Part shown: one piece after another, positions 5,411 to 25,137 of the stretch
How the letters are laid out: the number at the start of each line of letters is the position of its first letter
How positions within the stretch are numbered: position 1 is the first letter of the stretch
Notes under the pieces: generated by a model
The model's input: only the letters and a program-made list of their open reading frames with translations
Told to the model about the DNA's origin: nothing
The model's database searches: none
From: Rhodospirillales bacterium
GTDB taxonomy: Bacteria > Pseudomonadota > Alphaproteobacteria > Rhodospirillales > Defluviicoccaceae
Assembly (NCBI GenBank): GCA_007695045.1
Contig: REEP01000056.1
Location: 1-64,000 of the forward strand
Direction of reading: 5' to 3'
Length of the DNA stretch: 64,000 bases
Made by a program: the position numbers and the translations under genes

Positions 5411-5599
5411 TCAGGCATCCGGATCGAACTCGGCGTCGTTGGCGGCCATGCGGGCGAGATCGTCGATCTCCGCATCGGTGAGTTCGGCCAGTTCGTCCAG
5501 CGTCTTCACCCACTCCTCAAGACTGTTCCAGTTGTGATCCCGTACGGTGCGGCGGATCCGGGTCTTGGCGGTCTGGACCGCGGTTGCGCGCTTGGGCAT
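5411..5599 (-). CDS. 62-residue protein of unknown function, probably SOS-regulated
   Basis: The start is an ATG at 5597-5599 with GGAGAA a few bases upstream. The protein has a basic N-terminus (MPKRATAVQTAKTRIRRTVR), then an acidic helical C-terminus (LEEWVKTLDELAELTDAEI ... FDPDA). No membrane segment, signal or known motif is visible and I do not recognise the family. The charge split and amphipathic helix would suit a small binding protein. A promoter with an overlapping alphaproteobacterial LexA box lies about 120 nt upstream, so it is expected to be induced by DNA damage. It converges on the HAD gene. Confidence 0.65.
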   Translation of the reverse strand: MPKRATAVQTAKTRIRRTVRDHNWNSLEEWVKTLDELAELTDAEIDDLARMAANDAEFDPDA

Positions 5600-5619
5600 G
5601 ACGGTTCTCCATTCCTTTA

Positions 5620-5668
5620 GGGGTGTGTCGGGTTTCGGGTGTCGAGTTTCAGGTTTTGGGTTTCGGGG
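5620..5668. repeat. GGGTTTC-type G-rich repeat tract
   Basis: The plus strand carries iterated GGGTTTCGGGTGTC / GGTTTTGGGTTTCGGGG with five runs of three or more G. It lies in the untranslated leader between the SOS promoter and the 62-residue gene. The G-rich strand could form a quadruplex; the transcript would be C-rich. Confidence 0.45.
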
Positions 5669-5720
5669 CCTCGGATGGGGCGGCCAGTCCGACCGAAGGT
5701 CTCTGTGCCCCCTGGGCTGT

Positions 5721-5760
5721 GAACATAACAAGAACATATCAGTTCGGGTTGTGGAGTCAA
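5721..5760 (-). promoter_or_regulatory. LexA-regulated promoter (GTTC-N7-GTTC box)
   Basis: On the minus strand a -35 TTGACT (5755-5760) and a 16-nt spacer lead to a -10 TATGTT (5733-5738). The sequence GTTCTTGTTATGTTC (5721-5735) is an exact GTTC-N7-GTTC, the known LexA operator form of alphaproteobacteria, and it overlaps the -10. Transcription would run into the 62-residue gene. The remaining bases up to dapF (to 5918) show no other feature. Confidence 0.7.
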
Positions 5761-5918
5761 GCGAATCATTGCCCCTTTTGGGGGCTGATCGGGAGAACGC
5801 GTCAAGGACGGTTTCGGCTGGATGAGCGGGACACGCTCGGCCCGCCCCACCTCGCCGCAGGGATACCGGCGCGCGCGGCGGTGGACAGCAGCACCGCGTT
5901 CGCCATATCAGGGGCGGA

Positions 5919-25059: not shown

Positions 25060-25137
25060 TCAACGCTTGACCGTTGAGCACGTCCCTGGGCAGAAAACCC
25101 TCAGGGAGGAAATCCCTCAATCTTGGCGAAAAGCCAA
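25060..25137 (+). other. Structured leader with competing hairpins
   Basis: Between the L,D-transpeptidase and DUF882 genes are TCAACG/CGTTGA (25060-25077), two overlapping and mutually exclusive stems (CCCTG 25084 with CAGGG 25102; AGGGA 25103 with TCCCT 25113), and TTGGC/GCCAA (25123-25137) just before the ribosome binding site. This could be an attenuator-like leader or chance. Confidence 0.35.

What the first reader, a model, noticed from the sequence alone, without database searches (positions are those of the whole stretch)
5411..5760. Unknown 62-residue protein under a LexA-type promoter
The sequence GTTC-N7-GTTC overlaps the -10 of a well-formed minus-strand promoter (TTGACT, 16 nt, TATGTT) that reads into a small basic/acidic protein with its own ribosome site. 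Small SOS proteins in alphaproteobacteria can block division (SidA, DidA), but this one has no membrane helix and matches neither.
Basis: partly seen in the sequence, partly recalled or inferred. Interest (0 to 1): 0.65.

Follow-up and report, generated by a model that had tools for sequence, protein, structure and literature searches.

The report
New small protein family under LexA
A 62-residue bacterial protein of unknown function, belonging to a previously unnamed family found in only one family of bacteria, has a well-conserved DNA-damage (LexA) switch on its promoter, so it is very probably made as part of the cell's emergency response to DNA damage.

Summary
GTTCTTGTTATGTTC lies at 5721-5735 (-), overlaps the -10 of a TTGACT-16-TATGTT promoter, and reads into a 62-codon ORF (5411-5599, -) with its own ribosome site. 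The box alone would be weak evidence, because GTTC-N7-GTTC is common by chance. Comparison makes it strong. The same genome's lexA and imuA carry such boxes; the imuA box of a sister genus, and two LexA boxes published for Caulobacter, are letter-for-letter the same. The promoter/operator is a conserved island upstream of the orthologue in the sister species, where dapF is not the neighbour. The protein belongs to a new family, with invariant H, W, W, L and A in a core of about 40 residues. It occurs in all 11 held genomes of the host's taxonomic family (1-6 copies each), in none of 306 other genomes of its order, and in no Pfam, NCBIfam, PHROG, PADLOC, plasmid or phage collection. Seven members in five genera carry an exact box upstream. 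The protein is soluble and predicted to be three helices. Its function is not shown. My reading is an SOS-induced cytosolic binding protein that restrains a cell-cycle or replication partner. A SidA-like division block is possible but untested; DidA is not an SOS protein.

The parts
5411..5599 (-). 62-residue small protein gene (three predicted helices; core H22-x-W24 ... W30 ... L37-A38)
   Evidence: ORF and translation; 82% identical orthologue in Rhodospirillales MAG PLM2.Bin51; family in 11/11 genomes of the host's family
5607..5618 (-). ribosome-binding region AAAGGAATGGAG, GGAG ending 7 nt before the ATG
   Evidence: read from sequence; GGATTGGAGAG at the same place in the sister species
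5721..5735 (-). LexA-type operator GTTCTTGTTATGTTC
   Evidence: conserved in sister species as GTTCTCGTTATGTTC; identical to the imuA box of G005 and to two published Caulobacter LexA boxes (PMC12700426)
5755..5760 (-). -35 hexamer TTGACT
   Evidence: identical in the sister species
5733..5738 (-). -10 hexamer TATGTT, overlapped by the operator
   Evidence: identical in the sister species
5718..5770 (-). conserved promoter/operator island (3 differences in about 53 bases), flanked by poorly alignable sequence
   Evidence: pairwise alignment with PLM2.Bin51

Best explanation
This is an SOS gene. LexA sits on GTTC-N7-GTTC over the -10 and start region and shuts a strong sigma-70 promoter; after DNA damage RecA-driven LexA cleavage opens it (inferred from the conserved operator, not measured). 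The product is a soluble 7.1-kDa three-helix protein of a new family confined to one family of Rhodospirillales-type Alphaproteobacteria. Its conserved face (H-x-W, W, LADLSDxEI) most likely binds one partner protein. I think it most likely acts as a stoichiometric restrainer of a cell-cycle or replication component during damage. Control by LexA: about 0.85. Partner-binding mode of action: about 0.6. Division or cell-cycle target: about 0.35.
For: The host has a true lexA whose own box is GTTCTATTTTAGTTC, and imuA with GTTCTTTTTTTGTTC; lexA and imuA each carry an exact box in 9 loci across the 11 genomes. The imuA box of G005 is identical to this one. [quoted passage not shown] The operator/promoter is a conserved island between the two species of the genus, although in the sister species the gene beyond it is not dapF, so the box goes with the small gene. 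Seven of 31 family members have an exact box within 300 bp upstream against 1.15% expected per member: 5e-8, or 4e-7 with near-copies merged. Third-position bias and 82% identity show purifying selection on the frame. Three-helix model, pLDDT 75.
Against: No expression or binding data exist. Most paralogues, including the host's second copy (L014), have no box, so SOS control is not the family's common feature. Function and target are not shown; no fold match was found in the PDB and no sequence match in Pfam or NCBIfam. The structure model rests on two sequences (pTM 0.49). The tree cannot say whether boxed members share one origin.
Confidence: 0.7

Rival explanations
1. It is a LexA-controlled division inhibitor, working like SidA or SulA: on damage it binds a divisome protein and delays septation.
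For: Small, SOS-boxed, strong promoter; such inhibitors are rapidly evolving and lineage-specific (established knowledge; SidA).
Against: No membrane helix, while SidA and DidA act in the membrane on FtsW/FtsI/FtsN; no sequence relation found; paralogues without boxes suggest a broader role; gene neighbours give no divisome link.
Confidence: 0.25
2. It is an SOS-induced modulator of repair or translesion synthesis (a RecA, ImuA/B or replisome accessory factor).
For: Shares its exact operator with an imuA promoter, so would be induced together; lineage-specific small accessory factors of RecA exist elsewhere (DinI, RecX; general knowledge).
Against: No genetic linkage to repair genes; no similarity to known accessory factors.
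Confidence: 0.25
3. The GTTC repeats are the site of another regulator; the 11-bp spaced arrays seen at mraZ, the sigma gene and some paralogues would be multi-repeat sites not bound by LexA.
For: Three to four GTTC-like repeats at 11-bp spacing occur upstream of mraZ (L113) and of paralogues L012 and L027.
Against: The site here has only two repeats, as at lexA and imuA, and is identical to validated LexA boxes.
Confidence: 0.08
4. Chance: a random GTTC-N7-GTTC near a spurious frame in GC-rich DNA.
For: The bare pattern is at chance level in the window; the frame continues far upstream antisense to dapF.
Against: Conserved family, conserved footprint, zero controls for the full pattern.
Confidence: 0.03

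Closest known systems
SidA (Caulobacter, LexA-regulated division inhibitor)
   Same: Very small protein under a GTTC-N7-GTTC LexA box in an alphaproteobacterium.
   Different: SidA acts on membrane divisome proteins FtsW/FtsN; this protein is soluble, longer, and no relation was found. Function here untested.
DidA (Caulobacter)
   Same: Small protein (71 residues) linked to DNA damage in an alphaproteobacterium.
   Different: DidA is SOS-independent and has a transmembrane helix (PMC4211646).
DUF1127 small proteins
   Same: Small, multi-copy alphaproteobacterial proteins with an L-x-x-L-(S/D)-D-x-x-(L/I) stretch; can act by protein-protein contacts (PMC12501420).
   Different: Profile comparison gives no relation (hhalign probability 2%); the host has a separate true DUF1127; the DIG motif is lacking here.
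[quoted passage not shown]
   Same: Letter-for-letter the same LexA box (PMC12700426).
   Different: The paper passages read do not describe their products; only the operator is shared so far as tested.

Membership tests
Alphaproteobacterial LexA regulon | GTTC-N7-GTTC operator overlapping the promoter | tested here: met
   5721-5735 over the -10
Alphaproteobacterial LexA regulon | Host encodes LexA, and its own and imuA boxes match the operator | tested here: met
Alphaproteobacterial LexA regulon | Operator conserved with the gene in a related species | tested here: met
   promoter-proximal neighbour differs in the relative
Alphaproteobacterial LexA regulon | Induced by damage in a RecA- and LexA-dependent way; bound by LexA | not testable with these tools
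   needs RNA and binding assays
SidA/DidA-type division inhibitors | Single membrane helix | tested here: not met
   GRAVY -0.8, charged helices throughout
SidA/DidA-type division inhibitors | Blocks septation on overproduction | not testable with these tools
   needs overexpression and microscopy
DUF1127 (PF06568) | Profile match / L-x-DIG motif | tested here: not met
   no Pfam hit to it in any of 26 members; hhalign probability 2%
New family (core RVLxxHxWxxLxEWVxALDxLADLSDxEI) | Invariant H, W, W, L, A at fixed spacing | tested here: met
   alignment of 26 members

The most novel reading that the evidence does not exclude
A lineage-specific, expanded family of soluble three-helix proteins supplies a DNA-damage checkpoint of its own: in most genera one paralogue has been placed under LexA, while others answer to other stresses and act on the same partner.
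Probability: 0.25. Interest if true: 0.65.

Novelty: new variant of a known kind. Interest (0 to 1): 0.47.

Why it matters
SOS checkpoint proteins evolve quickly and are usually missed because they are small and unannotated. This one comes with a conserved operator, a defined family, clear invariant residues and paralogues with and without the LexA box, so the question of what such lineage-specific damage proteins target can be tested directly.

Tried and rejected
Pfam, NCBIfam, PADLOC and PHROG scans of the protein or the family: no credible match. PDB by sequence and by fold: nothing. Mobile-element origin: no match in phages, plasmids or viral contigs. Wider distribution: five weak, partial hits in the class (14-23 residues, E about 0.001-0.009) judged chance. 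DUF1127 kinship: rejected. The first PWM background was drawn partly from loci chosen for boxes, so its p-values are too pessimistic and are not used; the genome-wide rate is used instead. Regulation of dapF from this box: disfavoured, since the box stays with the small gene in the sister species while dapF is not adjacent. recA has no exact box in its upstream region in these genomes, only GTAC-N7-GTTC in four, so recA was not used as a yardstick.

Full report
Observation. The minus-strand features are exactly as described: -35 TTGACT at 5755-5760, -10 TATGTT at 5733-5738 and the operator GTTCTTGTTATGTTC at 5721-5735. A leader of about 120 bases follows, then AAAGGAATGGAG and the ATG of a 62-codon frame ending at 5411. 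The bare GTTC-N7-GTTC pattern means little on its own: 2 in the window against 1.57 expected, and 136 in the genome against 67 for the reversed control. The fuller form GTTCNTNWTATGTTC is a different matter: 15 sites in eleven related genomes and none in the control.

LexA context. The genome has a lexA gene with GTTCTATTTTAGTTC just upstream, and an imuA-like gene with GTTCTTTTTTTGTTC. The imuA name rests on my reading of the sequence and its conservation; Pfam has no hit for it. Nine of the eleven lexA loci and nine imuA loci in the family carry an exact box. The imuA box of genome G005 is identical to the box studied here. Two early SOS genes of Caulobacter also carry exactly GTTCttgttatGTTC; that paper defines its SOS set by transcriptomics and LexA binding (PMC12700426). 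Among the other GTTCNTNWTATGTTC sites, one precedes a gene that I read, from memory of the family, as an MmcB-type repair gene in G010.

Footprint. The sister species (G001; Rhodospirillales bacterium isolate PLM2.Bin51, REES01000112.1) has an 82% identical orthologue. Upstream, a block running from CAATGATTCGCTTGACT to GTTATGTTCACA has three differences, while the sequence on both sides aligns poorly until the ribosome site. In that species the gene beyond the promoter is not dapF, while the phosphatase on the other side is the same. The operator therefore belongs to the small gene. The coding differences are 7, 5 and 14 at the three codon positions, as expected for a selected protein.

Family. 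A search with the protein, and then with a profile of 26 members, finds it in all 11 held genomes of the host's taxonomic family, with one to six copies each, and in none of the other 306 genomes of the order. A class-wide sample gave only short chance-level matches. Core consensus: RVLxxHxWxxLxEWVxALDxLADLSDxEI, with invariant H, W, W, L and A. No known family, solved structure, plasmid, phage or viral contig matches. DUF1127, the nearest look-alike, is not related by profile comparison, and the host has a true DUF1127 as well.

Regulation across the family. Seven of 31 members have an exact GTTC-N7-GTTC within 300 bases upstream, where 1.15% is expected per member (binomial 5e-8; 4e-7 after merging near-copies). 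They fall in five genera: this gene and its orthologue, L009, L012, L027, and two less typical ones, L017 and L025. L012 and L027 carry overlapping boxes (one complete plus a degenerate third repeat in L012, two complete in L027), and share a second small gene downstream that is found in no other of 100 genomes. The host's second member (L014) has no box. SOS control is thus recurrent but not universal, and a short tree cannot tell one origin from several.

Mechanism. Shown: operator, promoter, translated-type conservation, family. Inferred: LexA repression and damage induction. The product is soluble (GRAVY -0.8, pI 4.6) and modelled as three helices, 3-20, 27-38 and 42-54 (mean pLDDT 75, pTM 0.49, two sequences). 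The basic N-terminus is peculiar to this genus; the conserved part is the H-x-W turn plus the two acidic amphipathic helices, which looks like a partner-binding surface. I judge a restraining role on a cell-cycle or replication component most likely, with a SidA-like division block and a repair-accessory role as rivals. None of these has been tested.

DidA is not an SOS protein; its discovery paper describes an SOS-independent pathway and a transmembrane protein (PMC4211646).

Noticed in passing
L110 (G000:C85, box 25062-25076 -) and L169 (G004:C424): A sigma-70-family (RpoH-like) gene, next to a divergent MarR-like gene in both genera, has a LexA-type box. In G000 the box is followed by CCCATATGGG, a composite found only four times in 11 genomes; the other three precede members of the small-protein family. 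It suggests an SOS-controlled alternative sigma factor.
   Followed up: partly
L113 (G000:C94:92179-92215): Four GTTC-like repeats at 11-bp spacing lie upstream of mraZ, the head of the division and cell-wall cluster.
   Followed up: no
L027 (G006:C39:21025-21357) and L012 (G003:C460:2228-2506): A second uncharacterised small gene (111 aa, motif WRIEGNPFPWRVR) lies just downstream of the SOS-boxed paralogue in two genera and nowhere else among 100 genomes.
   Followed up: partly
L108 (G000:C15:22487) and L115 (G000:C104:12800): LexA-type boxes precede a radical SAM protein and an AAA_23/SMC-like ATPase; the latter lies near a site-specific recombinase-like frame.
   Followed up: no
recA loci L129, L131, L133, L136: recA lacks an exact GTTC-N7-GTTC box upstream in this family; four genomes have GTAC-N7-GTTC about 110 bases upstream.
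   Followed up: partly
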